From: a virus
Length of the DNA: 64,000 bases
Reading direction: 5' to 3' (one strand)
Virus record (IMG/VR): IMGVR_UViG_3300034096_001618
Span: 1-64,000 of that record
Shown: piece after piece, positions 51,185 to 60,984 of the stretch
Numbering within the stretch: the first letter of the stretch is position 1
Layout: each line of letters opens with the position of its first letter
The notes under the pieces: generated by a model
Told to the model about the DNA's origin: nothing
Databases searched by the model: none
Seen by the model: the letters and a program-made list of their open reading frames with translations, nothing else
Program-made: the position numbers and the translations under genes

Positions 51185-51778
51185 ATGGCAATAGTAGGTG
51201 GTAATATGGGCTTGAGTACTCTCGGTGGATCATCCATCGTGTTCAAGCGCAAGTATAGATGGACGTTTGATGTGACTTGGAACAAACAGCAAATTCCAAG
51301 CGCATTTGTTAAGGTGGCAAACCGTCCAAGTTTAACAATTGAAGAAACTGAAATTAACTATCTACACGGAAAAATGTGGATTCCCGGTAAAGGTAGTTGG
51401 GAAACACTAAGTGTAACCTATTACGATATCGGTGGTGCTGGCGCTGCTGGTATGAAGGGTCTATGGGACTGGTTAGCTTCAGTTTACAACTTTACTGATC
51501 CGAACAGTCTTTCGCAGACTTCTCGTAGAGGTAATGATGGAAATGAGGCTGGTTGGGCAGCAGTTGGACTTCTTACCATGTATGATGGTACAGGCGCAAC
51601 TATGGAAACTTGGAAGCTTAAAAATCTTTGGCCAAGTGCTATCAACTTTGGCGATTTGGATTACGGCAACTCTGAAGAAGCCACTCTTGAATTAACCTTA
51701 AGGTTTAGCGAAGCTGAATACACGCCCTCTTGCGGTATCGGTGCTCCACAAGCAAGCAAACTTGGTTGCAACGCATAA
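51185..51778 (+). CDS. 19: Tail tube protein gp19 (copy 1)
   Basis: A 197-residue T4 gp19-type tube subunit: FKRKYRWTFDVTW, ASRP-type segment NRPSLTIEETEINYLHGKMW, and VTYYDIGGAGAAGMKGLWDW, GLLTMYDGTGATMETWKLKN, NFGDLDYGNSEEATLELTLRFSEAEY. These form the tube beta-barrel. Slightly longer than T4 gp19 (163) through an internal insertion near residue 100. It follows the sheath by 34 bases with GGAG upstream and precedes a second copy. Confidence 0.95.
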   Translation: MAIVGGNMGLSTLGGSSIVFKRKYRWTFDVTWNKQQIPSAFVKVANRPSLTIEETEINYLHGKMWIPGKGSWETLSVTYYDIGGAGAAGMKGLWDWLASVYNFTDPNSLSQTSRRGNDGNEAGWAAVGLLTMYDGTGATMETWKLKNLWPSAINFGDLDYGNSEEATLELTLRFSEAEYTPSCGIGAPQASKLGCNA

Positions 51779-51804
51779 TATTAAAATTAAAATTTCAATT
51801 TTTG

Positions 51805-51833
51805 GCCTCGTATATAAAATACGAGGCTTTTTT
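51805..51833 (+). terminator. Rho-independent terminator between the two tube genes
   Basis: GCCTCGTAT (51805-51813) and ATACGAGGC (51819-51827) form a perfect 9-bp stem followed by six T. It would set the ratio of sheath/tube 1 to tube 2. Confidence 0.9.
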
Positions 51834-51849
51834 ATTATCGAGGTTATAA

Positions 51850-52353
51850 ATGGCGCAGCAAATGGGATGGGGTGATAGTTTTGGTTTAGTGGATGGTTGC
51901 TTCAAAAGAAAAAATCGTTGGCTTTTAACGATTCCAGATATAAGCGCAGAGGGAATTAATTCTTTGCCTCCATCGAAAGCATCCAGACCTTCGCTTTCAT
52001 TCAAAGAACTAAGTTTGGAACATTTAAATGAAACAATTTATTTCCCCGGAAAACCAGAATGGAAGCCAATAACATTAACATTATATGACATGGCTAAACC
52101 AACTCACAAAATTTGGGAGTGGATTTATTCATATTATGATTTAGAAAATGATAAATTTAAATTTTCAGTTGGATTTAAAAAACCTGAAGCTCGGTTGACT
52201 TTATATGATGGTACTGGCTTAGAGCTTGAAACATGGTACATGAAGAATGTTTGGTGCCAAGACATTCAATTTGGCGACCTAGACATGGGAGATTCTGGTA
52301 TTGTAACAGTAGATTTAACTTTAAGATATGATAGAGCATATTTTTCATTTTAA
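51850..52353 (+). CDS. 19: Tail tube protein gp19 paralogue (copy 2)
   Basis: A 167-residue gp19 family member, close in length to T4 gp19: FKRKNRWLLTIPDI, KASRPSLSFKELSLEHLNE, PEWKPITLTLYDMAKPT, EARLTLYDGTGLELETWYMK and QFGDLDMGDSGIVTVDLTLR. It is clearly paralogous to copy 1 but diverged. T4 has a second gp19-like ring-forming protein gp54 (tube initiator) and gp3; this copy may play such a specialised part, or be a minor tube subunit. Separated from copy 1 by a terminator. Confidence 0.9.
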   Translation: MAQQMGWGDSFGLVDGCFKRKNRWLLTIPDISAEGINSLPPSKASRPSLSFKELSLEHLNETIYFPGKPEWKPITLTLYDMAKPTHKIWEWIYSYYDLENDKFKFSVGFKKPEARLTLYDGTGLELETWYMKNVWCQDIQFGDLDMGDSGIVTVDLTLRYDRAYFSF

Positions 52354-52734: not shown

Positions 52735-53280
52735 TCAAGTATCGCTAACTATATTATGCCTCCTGTATAAACTTTTTGTTTTTAAAGCAGGAATTTTTTG
52801 ATCAAGTTGAATTTGGATGAAATCAAGATATTTTCTTTTTAATTCATTATAATTTCTAGCTGTTCGATAAAGTTGTCGAAAATGATTTAATATACATGTT
52901 GTCATATAATTAAAAGCTTTGCCTTTTTTTGGATCAAAGCGATCAATTTTTTCAAAACATATCATTACGCCTTCTTGAACTGCATCATCTTGATCAATCA
53001 AATTAAATTTAGCGTATCTAACTATATTTTCAGAAAGAGTATAGAAGGCTATTGCCAATTCGTCTTGTGATTCTTGAAATTGAGAAGATATAATCTTAAA
53101 TTCTTTTTCAGTAACAAGCCAAGATTCGGGTTTTTTAAATTGTCCACGCTTTAATACTCTTGCTTGTGTTTCAATAATATCATCCATGAATAATTGGTAT
53201 TTGATTTTTTCTTTTTTGGTTTGCTGGAATTGGACGATCAATGTTTCAAATGTTTTGTTATTAAGATATTCAGTTGCCAT
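52735..53280 (-). CDS. 55: T4 gp55-like late sigma factor
   Basis: A 181-residue sigma-70-type factor of the T4 gp55 class (185 residues in T4): region 2 is visible as LSENIVRYAKFNLIDQDDAVQEGV, FEKIDRFDPKKGKAFNYMTT and CILNHFRQLYRTARNY. gp55 directs host RNA polymerase to late promoters with TATA-type -10 boxes and no -35 element, working with gp33 and the sliding clamp. AGGAGA site upstream. It supports the TATATA elements listed here as late promoters. Confidence 0.9.
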   Translation of the reverse strand: MATEYLNNKTFETLIVQFQQTKKEKIKYQLFMDDIIETQARVLKRGQFKKPESWLVTEKEFKIISSQFQESQDELAIAFYTLSENIVRYAKFNLIDQDDAVQEGVMICFEKIDRFDPKKGKAFNYMTTCILNHFRQLYRTARNYNELKRKYLDFIQIQLDQKIPALKTKSLYRRHNIVSDT

Positions 53281-55838: not shown

Positions 55839-56984
55839 ATGTCAGACGAGACTTTTCGCCCAAGAAGACCAAATCAAACAGGCGAATCTAATACAACAAA
55901 TCAGGAGAATATTCCATTGAGCAATCCACTAGATTCAGTCAATCAGGTACGTCAACAGGTCAATGAAGGCAATAATCCTAATGATATGCCGGGTGGAGGC
56001 GCATTCAACATTCAAGGTAATGTTCCACCAGCATTTGCTGCTGCTATTCAGGCAGCAAAAAGTGGTCAGCAACCACAGAGCCAGCCACAGAGCCAGCCAA
56101 AACGGGGCCTTAACATGAGTGCTGGTGGCGAATCAACTGCCTATCAGCAGGCTCCTGCTAGTTCTTTGTCAAACGCTTCTGCCAGTGGACACCTTAAGGA
56201 ACTTCTTGAAGGTCTTCGTGGATCGACCACTATTTATGAAGAGCTTCAACTTCCATCAAAGGGAAGGTTCTATAATGGCGAAGATGGACCTATCAATGGC
56301 GTTGTTTCAATTCGACCAATGACTGGTGAAGAAGAACAAATTCTTGCCACTCCAAGATTTGTTAAGAAGGGTCAAGCGATCAACATGATTTTCCAAAAGT
56401 GCCTTAAGGAAGGCTTCCGTGCTGAAAATCTTTTGACAATTGACAGAACTTATCTTCTAATTTATCTTCGTGGTATTTCATACGGTCCAAATTATGACGT
56501 TGAAATCAAGTGTCCAGAATGCGAAACTAAGTTCAGCACAAGCATTGATCTTAACAGTCTATATGTTGAATATACTCCTGATGAATATGGACCAATTCTT
56601 CAAGATGTTTTGCCAAACACAAAGTTGCCATTCAGTTATCGCCTATCAACAGGAAAAGATGAACAAGAAATTCAGGACCATCGTGATCGACGAATCAAGG
56701 CATTCGGAGATAATGGCACAGATGACAGCCTTACCTATCGCACTGCACAACTTTTGAACGACATCGATGGAATCGATAGCAAGACTGAACTTCAGATTCT
56801 CTTGAAAAATCTTCCAATCAATGATGTTTCATATATTCGCAACTGTATTAACGAACCTCCTTTCGGCGTTGACACAAATACAGAAATTGTTTGCCCAAGC
56901 TGTTTATCAGAATTCAGTCTCGATCTGCCTCTTGAAGCAAATTTTTTCTTCCCCAGACGGAAGAAGGCAAAGACGCAAGTCTAG
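55839..56984 (+). CDS. 26: Baseplate hub assembly protein, T4 gp26-like (PF12322 type), 0-frame product
   Basis: A 381-residue protein. The first 115 residues are a disordered Asn/Gln/Pro region absent from T4 gp26. The core starts ELQLPSKGRFYNGEDG and VVSIRPMTGEEEQILATPRF, the hallmark of the gp26-type baseplate family, followed by LLIYLRGISYGPNYDVEIKC. Two zinc pairs (CPEC about 226, CPSC about 356) are present. T4 gp26 helps build the hub. The gene ends at a likely -1 frameshift site at 56939-56948; 381 residues is the unshifted form and about 442 the shifted form. AGGAG site upstream. Confidence 0.85.
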   Translation: MSDETFRPRRPNQTGESNTTNQENIPLSNPLDSVNQVRQQVNEGNNPNDMPGGGAFNIQGNVPPAFAAAIQAAKSGQQPQSQPQSQPKRGLNMSAGGESTAYQQAPASSLSNASASGHLKELLEGLRGSTTIYEELQLPSKGRFYNGEDGPINGVVSIRPMTGEEEQILATPRFVKKGQAINMIFQKCLKEGFRAENLLTIDRTYLLIYLRGISYGPNYDVEIKCPECETKFSTSIDLNSLYVEYTPDEYGPILQDVLPNTKLPFSYRLSTGKDEQEIQDHRDRRIKAFGDNGTDDSLTYRTAQLLNDIDGIDSKTELQILLKNLPINDVSYIRNCINEPPFGVDTNTEIVCPSCLSEFSLDLPLEANFFFPRRKKAKTQV

Positions 56985-57166
56985 CAATCTGGGAAGGACT
57001 AGCAGAAGAGATTTTCTTCTTCCAATATCACATGCATCTAGATATGTCGGGATCAATGAGCTTGCCTATCAATCTTAGAAAATGGATGATCGAAAGATTT
57101 ATTCAGCAAAAGGAAAGCGAAAATAAAGCAATGGATGCACAACAACGCAAGGCAAGAAAAAGGTAG
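56936..57166 (+). CDS. -1 frame extension of the gp26-like protein (probable programmed frameshift product)
   Basis: The -1 frame opens at 56936, inside the gp26-like gene, and runs 76 codons to TAG at 57164-57166, reading KFFLPQTEEGKDASLAIWEG, then AEEIFFFQYHMHLDMSG and SLPINLRKWMIERFIQQKE, with strong coding character. It has no ATG, GTG, TTG or CTG before codon 33, so independent initiation of the whole segment is unlikely. The reader-frame slips at A_AAT_TTT (56939-56945) or T_TTT_TTC (56942-56948). The shifted product would be about 442 residues. It ends 6 bases before the next gene. Confidence 0.75.
   Translation, partial: SKFFLPQTEEGKDASLAIWEGLAEEIFFFQYHMHLDMSGSMSLPINLRKWMIERFIQQKESENKAMDAQQRKARKR
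56939..56948 (+). promoter_or_regulatory. Tandem slippery sequence for -1 frameshifting (AAATTTTTTC)
   Basis: A_AAT_TTT and T_TTT_TTC, both in the zero frame of the gp26-like gene (codons AAT at 56940, TTT at 56943, TTC at 56946), are canonical X_XXY_YYZ heptamers. Downstream structure was not assessed by folding. Confidence 0.65.
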
Positions 57167-57172
57167 ATATAA

Positions 57173-57913
57173 ATGACTAAAGAAAGATATCAAAATCCAA
57201 ATTGCGGTGATACCATCAATCTACGACTGTTTACTTATAACAGCAACAGTCGTAGAGATGTTAAAGAAATTACCCAAGTACAAATCTTTACTATTGATCC
57301 AACTTTAAAAAGTGAATCCAATCCTGAAGGCCTAAGACTGGTAGAAACAATTTCTGGAGCCAGTGTTGTTAAATCTAATACAGGCGAATATATCTTGTCA
57401 GTTTTTCTTGACCAAGAAATTTATGGCGTAGGATCATATTATGATGTATGGAATGTAGTTTTTGAAAATGGCGATTGCCTAAGTAATAGTATAAATAATA
57501 AATTTAACATTTATGCTGATCTTTGGTTTACTACGCCAACGCCAATAATTTATGATTTTAATTTTGCATTTAGACCCAATCGAATCAGAAAAGGCACTAA
57601 ACGCTACATTCAGATTGCGGTCACACCAAATGTTCCACGAGGTGCCGATCTATTAAAGTATTACGAAAATATCGCCATAGTCTCCGATATTAAGATATCA
57701 ATGGAAATGTACTGCGGGGAATGTGTACCAGCAGAAAATGACCTAAGATTGATTATAGATCGGCACCTAGTGGACTATCGTGAAGATAGCTATGCATATT
57801 GGTTTTTAGATACAACTCAATATGATGAAGGAATTTATAACATTTGGTTTGAAACTACTTCTGGCGAAAGCACATATGTTTCAGAAAAATATGCTCTTCA
57901 AATCTACAACTAA
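57173..57913 (+). CDS. Putative tail or baseplate structural protein
   Basis: A 246-residue protein, predicted largely beta: CGDTINLRLFTYNSNSRRD, VQIFTIDPTLKSESN, GEYILSVFLDQEIYGVGSYY, WFTTPTPIIYDFNFAFRPNR, and a C-terminal ESTYVSEKYALQIYN. The pattern (repeated beta-sandwich, PNRIRKGTKRYIQIAVTPNV) resembles phage tail structural proteins. Starts 6 bases after the frameshift product's stop, so it is coupled to the gp26-like gene. No family name recognised. Confidence 0.75.
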   Translation: MTKERYQNPNCGDTINLRLFTYNSNSRRDVKEITQVQIFTIDPTLKSESNPEGLRLVETISGASVVKSNTGEYILSVFLDQEIYGVGSYYDVWNVVFENGDCLSNSINNKFNIYADLWFTTPTPIIYDFNFAFRPNRIRKGTKRYIQIAVTPNVPRGADLLKYYENIAIVSDIKISMEMYCGECVPAENDLRLIIDRHLVDYREDSYAYWFLDTTQYDEGIYNIWFETTSGESTYVSEKYALQIYN

Positions 57914-57990: not shown

Positions 57991-59610
57991 ATGTCTGTTT
58001 CGACCACAAAGCTTGATTTTTGGATCGTCAACAAAATCAATGTAATGTTTATCGGTCGCCATGGCGTTGGAAAAACAGCCATGGTAAAAGAATCTTTTGA
58101 TAGACACAAGCTCAAATGGCAATATTTTAGTGCTAGCACCATGGACCCATGGTGCGATTTCATTGGCGTTCCTCGTGAACGTACTGAAAATAAAATTTCC
58201 ACAGCCTTTGAAATCGTTCGTGATATAGCCAAAGTTGAACCAACTGCTGCTATAACCTATGTGGTGGAAAATTGGAAACTTGATGTAAATCAAGCAAAAT
58301 TAATGGTTGAACATGCTTTAAGACCTGAGGGACAAACATTTCTTGACATTGTTCGACCACAACTTTTTGCAAGTGGTGACATTGAAGCATTGTTTTTTGA
58401 TGAATTTAATCGTAGCCCTAAAAAAGTTCGTAACGCTGTAATGGAACTGATTCAATTTGGCTCAATTAATGGTCATAAATTTCCAAAACTTAGATTTGTT
58501 TGGGCCGCTATTAATCCAGATGATGATGAACAAGAAAAATATGATGTAGAAGTTCTAGACGCAGCGCACAAAGACCGTTTTCCTGTTCAAGAATATATTC
58601 CTTACAAACCAAATGCTGAATGGTTTAGGAAGAATTATGGTCAGCGTCTTGCTGATTCGGCTCTCATTTGGTGGGATGAACTCACTGATGAAGTAAAGCG
58701 TAACGTAAGTCCTCGCAGACTCCAATATGCCATGGACATGTACAAATTAAAAGGTGACGTTAGAGACGTATTACCAATCAACTGTAATGTCAACAAATTG
58801 CTAACTGCTCTAAAAACTGGCCCAATTACTGAGAAATTAGAAGAATTAATCTCTACTCGTGACGAGGCAGAAACCAGTAAGTTTCTCGAAAATGAAAATA
58901 ATTTCTCTTCAGCAATTAAACATATTATTAAATCTGAAAGCTTCTTGGAATTTTTTGTTCCTCTTATGCCTAATGAAAAAATTAGCAGCCTTATGGCTAC
59001 AGATGAAAAAATCTGCAACCATATCATCAATAATTTAGACAAGGTCCCAGCCTTTCATAAAATTAGTAAAGAAATTATGAAAGCCAATCTTGATGCCTCG
59101 CTCGTAAAAAAGCTTCGTAGATCTTTGACAGAAAACGAAAATTTAGCCAAGGCCTTCGCAAAAGATGCAATTGAATGTCCCAAAGCGCCTATCCAAATTC
59201 ATTTCAACAAAAGAAAAACTAATTGGACCAATGATTTAGTTCTGATTAAATCAATGCCAATAGATAGCGTCAACCAAAGATTTGCAGTTTACGAAAAAAT
59301 AAAAAATGGTATCCCTGAAAAAATAACACAAGAAGAATCTATTGAAACTTTAAAAATAATCAACAATATATTTTCAAATAACAATATTATAGGAACAACA
59401 CAAGAACGAGATCGTTGGCAATTTGCTTCAATTGTAGCAGATTCAGCTTTCGATAAAATTTTCGGCATCATAAATCATTGCCTGCATAATATGCACAAAG
59501 AAAGCAAACTCTCTATTGATGAGATTATTAAAAACAATGACAACAATTTTAATGAATTGTTTAAAACAATTAATCAATTGGGCCTCAATTTCAAGCTATC
59601 TGTTTCATAA
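57991..59610 (+). CDS. MoxR-type AAA+ ATPase
   Basis: A 539-residue AAA+ ATPase. Walker A: FIGRHGVGKTAMVKES (about residue 22); Walker B: IEALFFDEFNRSPKKVRNAV (about 131); sensor I WAAINPDD; arginine finger DAAHKDRFP; sensor II NVSPRRLQYA. The layout matches MoxR-family chaperone ATPases. The C-terminal 250 residues (helical, ending FKTINQLGLNFKLSVS) are an extension. It is followed after 36 bases by a VWA-domain partner, the usual MoxR arrangement. Expected role: ATP-driven remodelling or loading of a target by the VWA partner. Confidence 0.9.
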   Translation: MSVSTTKLDFWIVNKINVMFIGRHGVGKTAMVKESFDRHKLKWQYFSASTMDPWCDFIGVPRERTENKISTAFEIVRDIAKVEPTAAITYVVENWKLDVNQAKLMVEHALRPEGQTFLDIVRPQLFASGDIEALFFDEFNRSPKKVRNAVMELIQFGSINGHKFPKLRFVWAAINPDDDEQEKYDVEVLDAAHKDRFPVQEYIPYKPNAEWFRKNYGQRLADSALIWWDELTDEVKRNVSPRRLQYAMDMYKLKGDVRDVLPINCNVNKLLTALKTGPITEKLEELISTRDEAETSKFLENENNFSSAIKHIIKSESFLEFFVPLMPNEKISSLMATDEKICNHIINNLDKVPAFHKISKEIMKANLDASLVKKLRRSLTENENLAKAFAKDAIECPKAPIQIHFNKRKTNWTNDLVLIKSMPIDSVNQRFAVYEKIKNGIPEKITQEESIETLKIINNIFSNNNIIGTTQERDRWQFASIVADSAFDKIFGIINHCLHNMHKESKLSIDEIIKNNDNNFNELFKTINQLGLNFKLSVS

Positions 59611-59646
59611 ATGAGAAAAATTAGTTGTCATCGTTGAGGAATAATT

Positions 59647-60984
59647 ATGAGTGTTCTGGATATTGCAGTATCAGAAAAAAATGATGTTAAAATAACCAAT
59701 GAAGAGTGGTTTGAAATTAGCAGCGCACTAGAGCCTCATCATGCCGTTTTCTATAAAGTCTGGCAGATGGGCAAACCAATATTCAATGAAGAAATTTCAA
59801 CCGCTGCCGTTCAATTTGACGAAGAAGGAAAATTTATATTGTTTTATTTTAATCCTAAATTTTGGAAGTCTCTAGATCTTTACAATCGTTTATTTGTCAT
59901 TTGCCATGAAGCATTGCATATTGTTCTTAATCATGGCATTAGATCAAAAGATGATAAAATTAATCGACAAGCATGTAATACTGCTATGGATATTGTTGTA
60001 AATCACACACTTATTCGTAACTTTGGATTTGAACGAAATAAAATTACAAATGGAGAAGAATACTGCTGGGTCGATACAGTATTTAAGGATCATGAAACAT
60101 TACCACCAAGCAACAATCAATTTGAATTTTATTATAATCTTTTTGAAAAATTTTATGGTGACGGCAATATGGGCGATGGTGAAGGAGGTGGACCAAAAAC
60201 TGTTGATGATCATGAATCCATGGGAGAAAAATCTGGGAATTGGAACAAATTTATCGATCAATTAAATAATGGTCTTTCAGATGAAGAAAAAGAAAGTCTA
60301 AAATCAACAGTAGATAAACATTTTCAAAAAGAACCACCAAAAAATGATAACTCAAATCTAAATTCACCCGCTGGTTCCAATACTGGCGGTCTGTGGACTT
60401 TTGCAAGTGCTAAGAAATATAAAAAAATTCTTAAATGGGAAACTGTTATCAAAAAATGGGCGCAAAAAAGAATAATAGAAAGTTATCGTGATGTTGAACA
60501 ATGGGCAAGAACCAATAGACGCATGACGCTTCTCCCTAAAGAAATGATTCTACCAAGCGAAATGGAAGTCGATGAACGTGATTATGTTGAAAATAAAATT
60601 GATGTTTGGTTTTTTCTTGATACAAGTGGATCATGCTGGACTCTAAAAGATAGATTTTTTGCTGCTGCTGAATCTTTGCCAGAAAAAAGATTCAATGTAA
60701 GACTATTTTGCTTTGATACGAATGTGCAAGAAACCAACTTAAAAGAAAGAAAGATATATGGAGGCGGAGGCACTTCTTTCAGCATCATTGAACAATATAT
60801 TCAAAGAACTATGCAAAATGAAAATGTTAAATACCCCAACGCTGTTTGGATTTTAACAGATGGTTATGGAAATCAAGTGAAACCATTGCATCCTGAAAAA
60901 TGGCATTGGTTCTTAACAGAAGGTGGAGTTAAAAATTACATTGACGAAAAATCAAATGTCTTTAGTCTTAAAGATTTTGAATAA
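59647..60984 (+). CDS. VWA-domain protein with HExxH metallopeptidase-like N-terminus (DUF2201/COG3864 type)
   Basis: A 445-residue protein with two domains. The N-terminal part (residues about 70-130) has a metallopeptidase-like signature LFVICHEALHIVLNHGIRSK and CNTAMDIVVNHTL. The C-terminal VWA domain (about 318-430) has a MIDAS-like loop FFLDTSGSCWTLKDRF, GGGGTSFSIIEQYI and VWILTDGYGN. The predicted-metallopeptidase plus VWA arrangement is typical of partners of MoxR-type ATPases; whether the HExxH is catalytic is uncertain. Starts after GAGGAA. It converges with the nuclease-like gene. Confidence 0.85.
   Translation: MSVLDIAVSEKNDVKITNEEWFEISSALEPHHAVFYKVWQMGKPIFNEEISTAAVQFDEEGKFILFYFNPKFWKSLDLYNRLFVICHEALHIVLNHGIRSKDDKINRQACNTAMDIVVNHTLIRNFGFERNKITNGEEYCWVDTVFKDHETLPPSNNQFEFYYNLFEKFYGDGNMGDGEGGGPKTVDDHESMGEKSGNWNKFIDQLNNGLSDEEKESLKSTVDKHFQKEPPKNDNSNLNSPAGSNTGGLWTFASAKKYKKILKWETVIKKWAQKRIIESYRDVEQWARTNRRMTLLPKEMILPSEMEVDERDYVENKIDVWFFLDTSGSCWTLKDRFFAAAESLPEKRFNVRLFCFDTNVQETNLKERKIYGGGGTSFSIIEQYIQRTMQNENVKYPNAVWILTDGYGNQVKPLHPEKWHWFLTEGGVKNYIDEKSNVFSLKDFE

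What the first reader, a model, noticed from the sequence alone, without database searches (positions are those of the whole stretch)
56931..57166. Likely programmed -1 frameshift extending the gp26-like hub protein
A coding-quality -1 frame of 76 codons starts inside the gp26-like gene and has no usable start codon for 32 codons. Exactly at the overlap are two canonical slippery heptamers in the zero frame (A_AAT_TTT and T_TTT_TTC, 56939-56948). Tail assembly proteins with a frameshifted second form are well known in long-tailed phages (the gpG/gpGT arrangement); here it would yield 381- and 442-residue forms of a hub assembly protein.
Basis: partly seen in the sequence, partly recalled or inferred. 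Interest (0 to 1): 0.75.

Follow-up and report, generated by a model that had tools for sequence, protein, structure and literature searches.

The report
Frameshift-made tail chaperone in T4-type phages
Near the end of this phage's gp26-like tail gene, ribosomes very probably slip back one base on a run of six U's to make a second, longer protein; this is the well-known two-form tail-assembly chaperone trick, here in an uncultured group of T4-type phages, and the same layout recurs in many of its relatives.

Summary
The gp26-like gene (55839-56984, 381 codons) ends in frame 0, while a -1 frame is open from 56936 to 57163 with no ATG/GTG/TTG until 57032. The slip site is T_TTT_TTC (56942-56948). 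In 52 non-redundant relatives and 77 non-redundant marine T4-type (cyanophage-like) loci, every one reads NNT_TTT_TTC. Among 60 comparable columns at the gp26 end, the third codon base is invariant only in those three codons, a constraint that downstream initiation cannot explain. The 72-codon extension is under purifying selection (median dN/dS 0.17), and most of its invariant core lies upstream of the first start codon. It links, by a chain of profile matches, to the small 'gp51' of cyanophages and to the C-terminus of T4 gp51, itself a gp26-like domain plus such a tail in one gene. In some relatives the pair sits between tail tube and tape measure, as lambda G/GT does. A 2022 paper already assigned the T4-like tail assembly chaperone genes, so this is a new, unusually well-constrained member of a known kind. 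Expression, slippage efficiency and chaperone activity are untested.

The parts
55839..56984 (+). gp26-like gene, short form (381 aa; PF12322 T4_baseplate / phrog_150); by inference the short tail assembly chaperone (TAC-N). Residues 1 to about 115 are low-complexity and poorly conserved; the family domain is about 135-374.
   Evidence: PF12322 E=8e-19; phrog_150 E=3e-23
56942..56948 (+). Slippery heptamer T_TTT_TTC (zero frame AAT TTT TTC), proposed -1 frameshift site
   Evidence: NNT_TTT_TTC in 52/52 clade and 77/77 cyanophage-type representatives; third base invariant only here among 60 columns
56939..56945 (+). Second, overlapping heptamer A_AAT_TTT; present here but in only 38 of 52 representatives, so probably not the essential site
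56982..56984 (+). Zero-frame stop codon TAG of the short form
56948..57166 (+). -1 frame extension, 72 codons plus TAG; by inference TAC-C, the C-terminal part of the 442-residue long form; three predicted helices
   Evidence: dN/dS 0.17; 17 invariant columns; pLDDT 88
57032..57166 (+). 44-codon ORF from the first start codon in the -1 frame; the rival independent product; lacks most of the conserved core of the extension

Best explanation
The gene makes two proteins. Most ribosomes read 55839-56984 and release the 381-residue gp26-like short form. A minority, with tRNA-Phe in both P and A sites on U_UUU_UUC (56942-56948), slip back one base, pass the UAG at 56982 and continue in the -1 frame to 57166, giving a 442-residue long form with a 72-residue helical C-terminal domain. 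By homology and by the gene order in relatives, the two forms are the short and long tail assembly chaperones (TAC-N and TAC-NC, as lambda gpG and gpGT, or T4 gp26 and gp51). They coat the tape measure protein and recruit tube subunits during tail assembly. Shown here: sequence conservation, slip-site constraint, coding constraint and homology. Inferred: slippage, its efficiency, and the chaperone role.
For: (1) All 52 non-redundant clade members and all 77 non-redundant cyanophage-type loci read NNT_TTT_TTC. Preceding codons vary (AAT, AGT, TCT, GGT) but always end in T; elsewhere in the clade's gp26 genes TTT is only 47% of Phe codons and T ends 56% of NNY codons. (2) Of 60 comparable columns at the gp26 C-terminus the third base is invariant in exactly the three slippery codons; elsewhere the commonest base reaches at most 0.69, apart from the two flanking columns at 0.90 and 0.96. 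(3) The -1 frame is open across the gp26 stop in 62/62 relatives found through gp26 alone; the extension after the stop has median dN/dS 0.17 over the 134 of 1326 pairs with usable dS, synonymous sites otherwise being saturated. (4) The invariant core W..L.EE.FFF.YH lies before the first start codon of the window, and 22/52 representatives have no ATG/GTG/TTG before the FFF block. (5) The same arrangement with TTTTTTC or TTTTTTT occurs in PA5oct, RaK2, Atu_ph07, XaC1, XacN1, RAS14, Phosso, Vibrio 2.275.O, SynMITS9220M01, phiM19 and the KVP40 relative V09. (6) Extension homology by profile: clade to SP-15-like E=4.5e-12, SP-15-like to RaK2-like 1.9e-7, cyanophage-type to T4 gp51 C-terminus 1.7e-5. 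T4 gp51 matches phrog_150 over 13-280 of 282, gp26 over 14-235. (7) Sheath-tube-gp26-tape measure order in LIS04 and immuto as annotated; SP-15 and Mel-JY01 have a long tail/hypothetical ORF in that place.
Against: No product has been seen. No conserved 3' stimulatory structure: 19 consensus pairs without one compensatory change; window z-scores -1.0 to +0.2, though three relatives fold better than shuffles (z -2.2 to -3.9). The tape measure gene is not next to this gene and was not recognised in the tail region or in the end of the record that were scanned. The clade's extension does not match T4 gp51 or the cyanophage extension directly, only through intermediates. Fold matches to named tail assembly chaperones are below significance. 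In many cyanophage-type loci an ATG lies just after the gp26 stop, so re-initiation could add product there.
Confidence: 0.87

Rival explanations
1. The downstream ORF is a separate small gene, translated from its own start codon by coupled re-initiation after the gp26 stop.
For: Small separate CDS are annotated at this place in cyanophages, XacN1, RAS14, Vibrio 2.275.O, phiM19 and Mel-JY01; many cyanophage-type loci have an ATG within 5-14 nt of the stop. T4 gene 26 has an annotated internal product 26'.
Against: In the window the first ATG/GTG/TTG (57032) lies after the invariant W..L.EE.FFF.YH core; 22/52 representatives have no usable start before the FFF block. It does not explain the invariant third bases of the slippery codons.
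Confidence: 0.06
2. Transcriptional slippage on the T6 run adds or removes a base in a share of the mRNAs, rather than ribosomal slippage.
For: A T6 run is present in every representative.
Against: Six T's is short for efficient polymerase slippage (general knowledge). The run keeps one fixed phase, NNT_TTT_TTC, as tandem tRNA slippage requires; common descent could also keep the phase.
Confidence: 0.04
3. A sequencing error, or a recent frameshift mutation splitting one long gene.
For: Homopolymer runs are error-prone.
Against: Identical protein in three other metagenome assemblies (L002-L004); the same split in all 52 representatives and across distant phages; the zero-frame stop always lies 31-49 nt after the start of the T run in the clade.
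Confidence: 0.005
4. The frameshift is real, but the two forms are structural baseplate hub subunits rather than tape-measure chaperones.
For: The family is named baseplate hub subunit; in this clade the gene is not beside a recognisable tape measure gene.
Against: Gene order in LIS04 and immuto; T4 gp51 is annotated as a chaperone; the 2022 assignment of T4-like chaperone genes (cited in PMC10885494 and PMC12846349).
Confidence: 0.1

Closest known systems
Tail assembly chaperones of T4-like phages (T4 gp26 and gp51; Vladimirov, Gautam & Davidson 2022, Virology 566:9-15, known here only through citations)
   Same: gp26-like short form and a long form with a small C-terminal helical domain; other T4-type groups use a T-rich slip site near the gp26 end (PMC12846349).
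   Different: T4 encodes the two forms as two genes on opposite strands; here one gene with a -1 slip. This clade has a long low-complexity N-terminus and no tape measure gene alongside.
Phage lambda gpG/gpGT (and P2 gpE/E+E')
   Different: No sequence relation tested or found; different slip sequence; position next to the tape measure gene not met in this record.
Vandenendeviridae/Andersonviridae TAC locus with invariant GTTTTT (PMC12846349)
   Same: T-run slip site, -1 frame open for over 200 bp in every genome, extension usually annotated as a hypothetical protein.
   Different: Different phage families; homology with the present proteins not tested.

Membership tests
gp26 / T4_baseplate family (PF12322, phrog_150) | Match to the family profile above the curated cut-off | tested here: met
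   PF12322 68.6 bits against a cut-off of 24.5; phrog_150 E=3e-23
Frameshifted tail assembly chaperone (G/GT type) | -1 ORF overlapping the 3' end of the short-form gene, with an in-frame X_XXY_YYZ heptamer in the overlap | tested here: met
   T_TTT_TTC at 56942-56948; conserved in 52/52 representatives
Frameshifted tail assembly chaperone (G/GT type) | The extension is a real, selected coding sequence | tested here: met
   median dN/dS 0.17 over 134 usable pairs; 17 invariant columns
Frameshifted tail assembly chaperone (G/GT type) | Gene lies between major tail tube gene and tape measure gene | tested here: not met
   Window: two tail tube genes at 51185-52353, gp26-like gene 3.5 kb further on, no tape measure gene recognised nearby. 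Met in relatives LIS04 and immuto as annotated. The record is probably a fragment of a larger genome.
Frameshifted tail assembly chaperone (G/GT type) | Both forms bind the tape measure protein, the long form recruits tube subunits, and neither is in the virion | not testable with these tools
   needs biochemistry
Frameshifted tail assembly chaperone (G/GT type) | Short form has the fold of known tail assembly chaperones | tested here: inconclusive
   gp26-like model weak (pLDDT 61); named chaperones appear only at E=0.5-2
T4 gp51-type long form | gp26-like domain plus a C-terminal helical domain homologous to the gp51 C-terminus | tested here: inconclusive
   No direct match of the clade extension to T4 gp51 (E=0.07); linked through SP-15-like, RaK2-like and cyanophage-type extensions

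The most novel reading that the evidence does not exclude
Within one homologous gp26-gp51 family the route to the long form has changed: -1 slip on U_UUU_UUC in most lineages (this clade, cyanophages, RaK2, PA5oct, KVP40 type), a +1 (or -2) shift in SP-15, LIS04, SagM-GXN1, immuto, Mel-JY01 and LR756508, and two separate genes in T4, while the two-form product is kept.
Probability: 0.5. Interest if true: 0.5.

Novelty: new member of a known kind. Interest (0 to 1): 0.4.

Why it matters
A 2016 review still named T4 as the exception to the near-universal G/GT frameshift (PMC5009743). The pattern here supports the view that the T4 type has the same two-form chaperone, by frameshift in many lineages and by two genes in T4. 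Practically, the long form is invisible to ordinary annotation: the extension is called a separate small hypothetical or 'hub assembly catalyst' gene, or missed, in the relatives examined. A single codon-level test, NNT_TTT_TTC, finds it.

Tried and rejected
Conserved 3' pseudoknot or hairpin: none supported by covariation. A_AAT_TTT as the main site: broken in 14 of 52 representatives. Own start codon: see rivals. Sequencing error: rejected by relatives. Tape measure gene in the record: no convincing family match; eight long ORFs of the window have no strongly hydrophobic segment. Fold search of the extension against solved structures: nothing; against viral models: nothing significant. Sequence search of solved structures: only chance zinc-finger matches for gp26 and none for the extension. 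The 2022 Virology paper could not be read; its content is taken from its title and two citing papers. I also recall from memory its abstract saying that frameshifting is conserved in several T4-like groups; that is not checked here. A first attempt at profile comparison failed on a script error and was repeated.

Full report
What is there. The window is part of a 78,476-base virus record that encodes a contractile-tail phage: T4-type tail sheath stabiliser and sheath, two tube paralogues, and, after a sigma-like gene, a glycosyltransferase-like gene and four small minus-strand ORFs, a gp26-like gene at 55839-56984 (PF12322 E=8e-19, phrog_150 E=3e-23). The gene ends with ...GCA AAT TTT TTC TTC CCC... 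and a TAG at 56982. The -1 frame is open from 56936 to 57163 and has no ATG, GTG or TTG before 57032. Relatives sit on contigs of up to 532 kb in the viral collection and 595 kb in the phage collection, so the source is probably a jumbo phage.

Is it more than chance? A search with the gp26-like protein alone, which cannot favour loci that keep the extension, returned 63 loci. In all 62 whose gp26 stop is on the contig, the -1 frame runs on for 58-80 codons. A search with the extension itself gave 45 loci, all with the T6 run at the same place. After removing near-duplicates, 52 representatives remain, all with NNT_TTT_TTC; so have all 77 non-redundant cyanophage-type loci found with the gp26 of SynMITS9220M01.

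The sharpest test is at codon level. In the last 115 codons of gp26, 60 alignment columns hold amino acids that allow a choice of third base. In 55 of them the commonest third base reaches at most 69%. The three slippery codons are invariant (T, T, C in 52 of 52). The two flanking columns are intermediate: GCA before it (90%), which would favour A_AAT_TTT, and TTC after it (96%), whose third base is the first base of a conserved proline codon in the -1 frame. The first two of the slippery positions, T3 and T6, carry no coding constraint in the -1 frame, because the shifted ribosome begins new reading only at position 9. A downstream start codon would not need them. This is the classical signature of a frameshift site.

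The extension. Beyond the zero-frame stop, synonymous sites are close to saturated while nonsynonymous change is limited: median dN/dS 0.17 over the 134 of 1326 pairs with usable dS; mean pN 0.27 against pS 0.92 over all pairs. Seventeen columns are invariant among 22 diverse members, including W, L.EE and FFF.YH, and these named ones lie before ATG 57032. AlphaFold2 on the alignment gives three helices at mean pLDDT 88. The gp26-like part models poorly (61), and Foldseek finds its own family first (SP-15 'baseplate hub subunit', E=4e-12) with named tail assembly chaperones only below significance.

Relatives. In cultured phages the same layout recurs: PA5oct, RaK2, Atu_ph07, XaC1, Phosso, Vibrio 2.275.O, SynMITS9220M01 and the KVP40 relative V09 have TTTTTTC at the end of gp26 with an open -1 extension; XacN1, RAS14 and phiM19 have TTTTTTT. 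The extension is annotated as a separate small gene in cyanophages ('putative baseplate hub assembly catalyst'), phiM19 and others, and as nothing in RaK2. Two further groups (D508, Sajous1) keep the -1 layout without a perfect heptamer. In SP-15, LIS04, SagM-GXN1, immuto, Mel-JY01 and LR756508 the matching extension lies in the +1 frame. Profile comparison links these extensions in a chain that ends at the C-terminus of T4 gp51. T4 gp51 aligns along nearly all of phrog_150, T4 gp26 only to position 235: T4 has the long and short forms as two genes, on opposite strands.

How it works. The best reading is a programmed -1 frameshift on U_UUU_UUC producing a short chaperone and a minor long form with a small helical C-terminal domain, in the manner of lambda gpG/gpGT (PMC5009743). 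Gene order supports the chaperone role in LIS04 and immuto, where the gene sits between tube and annotated tape measure; in SP-15 and Mel-JY01 a long ORF stands in that place. In the present record the gene is not beside any recognisable tape measure gene, so this membership feature is not met locally. No stimulatory RNA structure shared by the clade was found, so efficiency cannot be guessed.

What is known. [quoted passage not shown] the first says that some T4-like phages carry a short gene and a separate long fused gene, the second that poly-T sequences are known -1 signals in the TAC-N genes of T4-like phages. The original was not readable here. The finding is therefore a new member of a known kind.

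Noticed in passing
L113 (SP-15), L115 (LIS04), L114 (SagM-GXN1), L123 (immuto), L111 (Mel-JY01), L116 (LR756508): The extension homologous to the -1 extension lies in the +1 frame, open across the gp26 stop. No ATG lies between the gp26 stop and the conserved block in any but SagM-GXN1; candidate +1 slips such as UUU_C or CUU_U are present in some, but no single site is conserved.
   Followed up: partly
L129:2803-4229 (T4 genes 26 and 51): T4 gp51 is a gp26-like domain plus the small C-terminal domain in one ORF, while T4 gp26 ends ...EFFELL with GAG TTC TTT GAG, without the slip site.
   Followed up: yes
L218 (Vibrio phage D508), L219 (Salmonella phage Sajous1): -1 extension kept directly after the gp26 end, but without a perfect X_XXY_YYZ heptamer (CTT TTC AAG TAA; ATT TTC ATT TAA).
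   Followed up: no
window 51185-51778 and 51850-52353: Two adjacent tail tube paralogues (both phrog_4542, E about 1e-23) after a 794-aa sheath.
   Followed up: no
window 52735-53280 (-): Protein with a sigma-70 region 2 match (E=1.7e-7) inside the tail gene region; possibly a phage late-gene sigma factor.
   Followed up: no
window 57173-57913: 246-aa protein directly downstream of the extension with no Pfam match; the only phage-collection match is in the 595-kb uncultured phage LR756511, where it also follows the gp26-like gene.
   Followed up: no
window 57991-60984: AAA ATPase (phrog_1297) followed by a DUF2201 (metallopeptidase plus VWA-like) protein, a chaperone-like pair next to the tail assembly gene.
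   Followed up: no
window 55839-56190: The N-terminal 115 or so residues of the gp26-like protein are Gln/Asn/Pro/Ser-rich and poorly conserved; T4 and cyanophage gp26 lack them.
   Followed up: no
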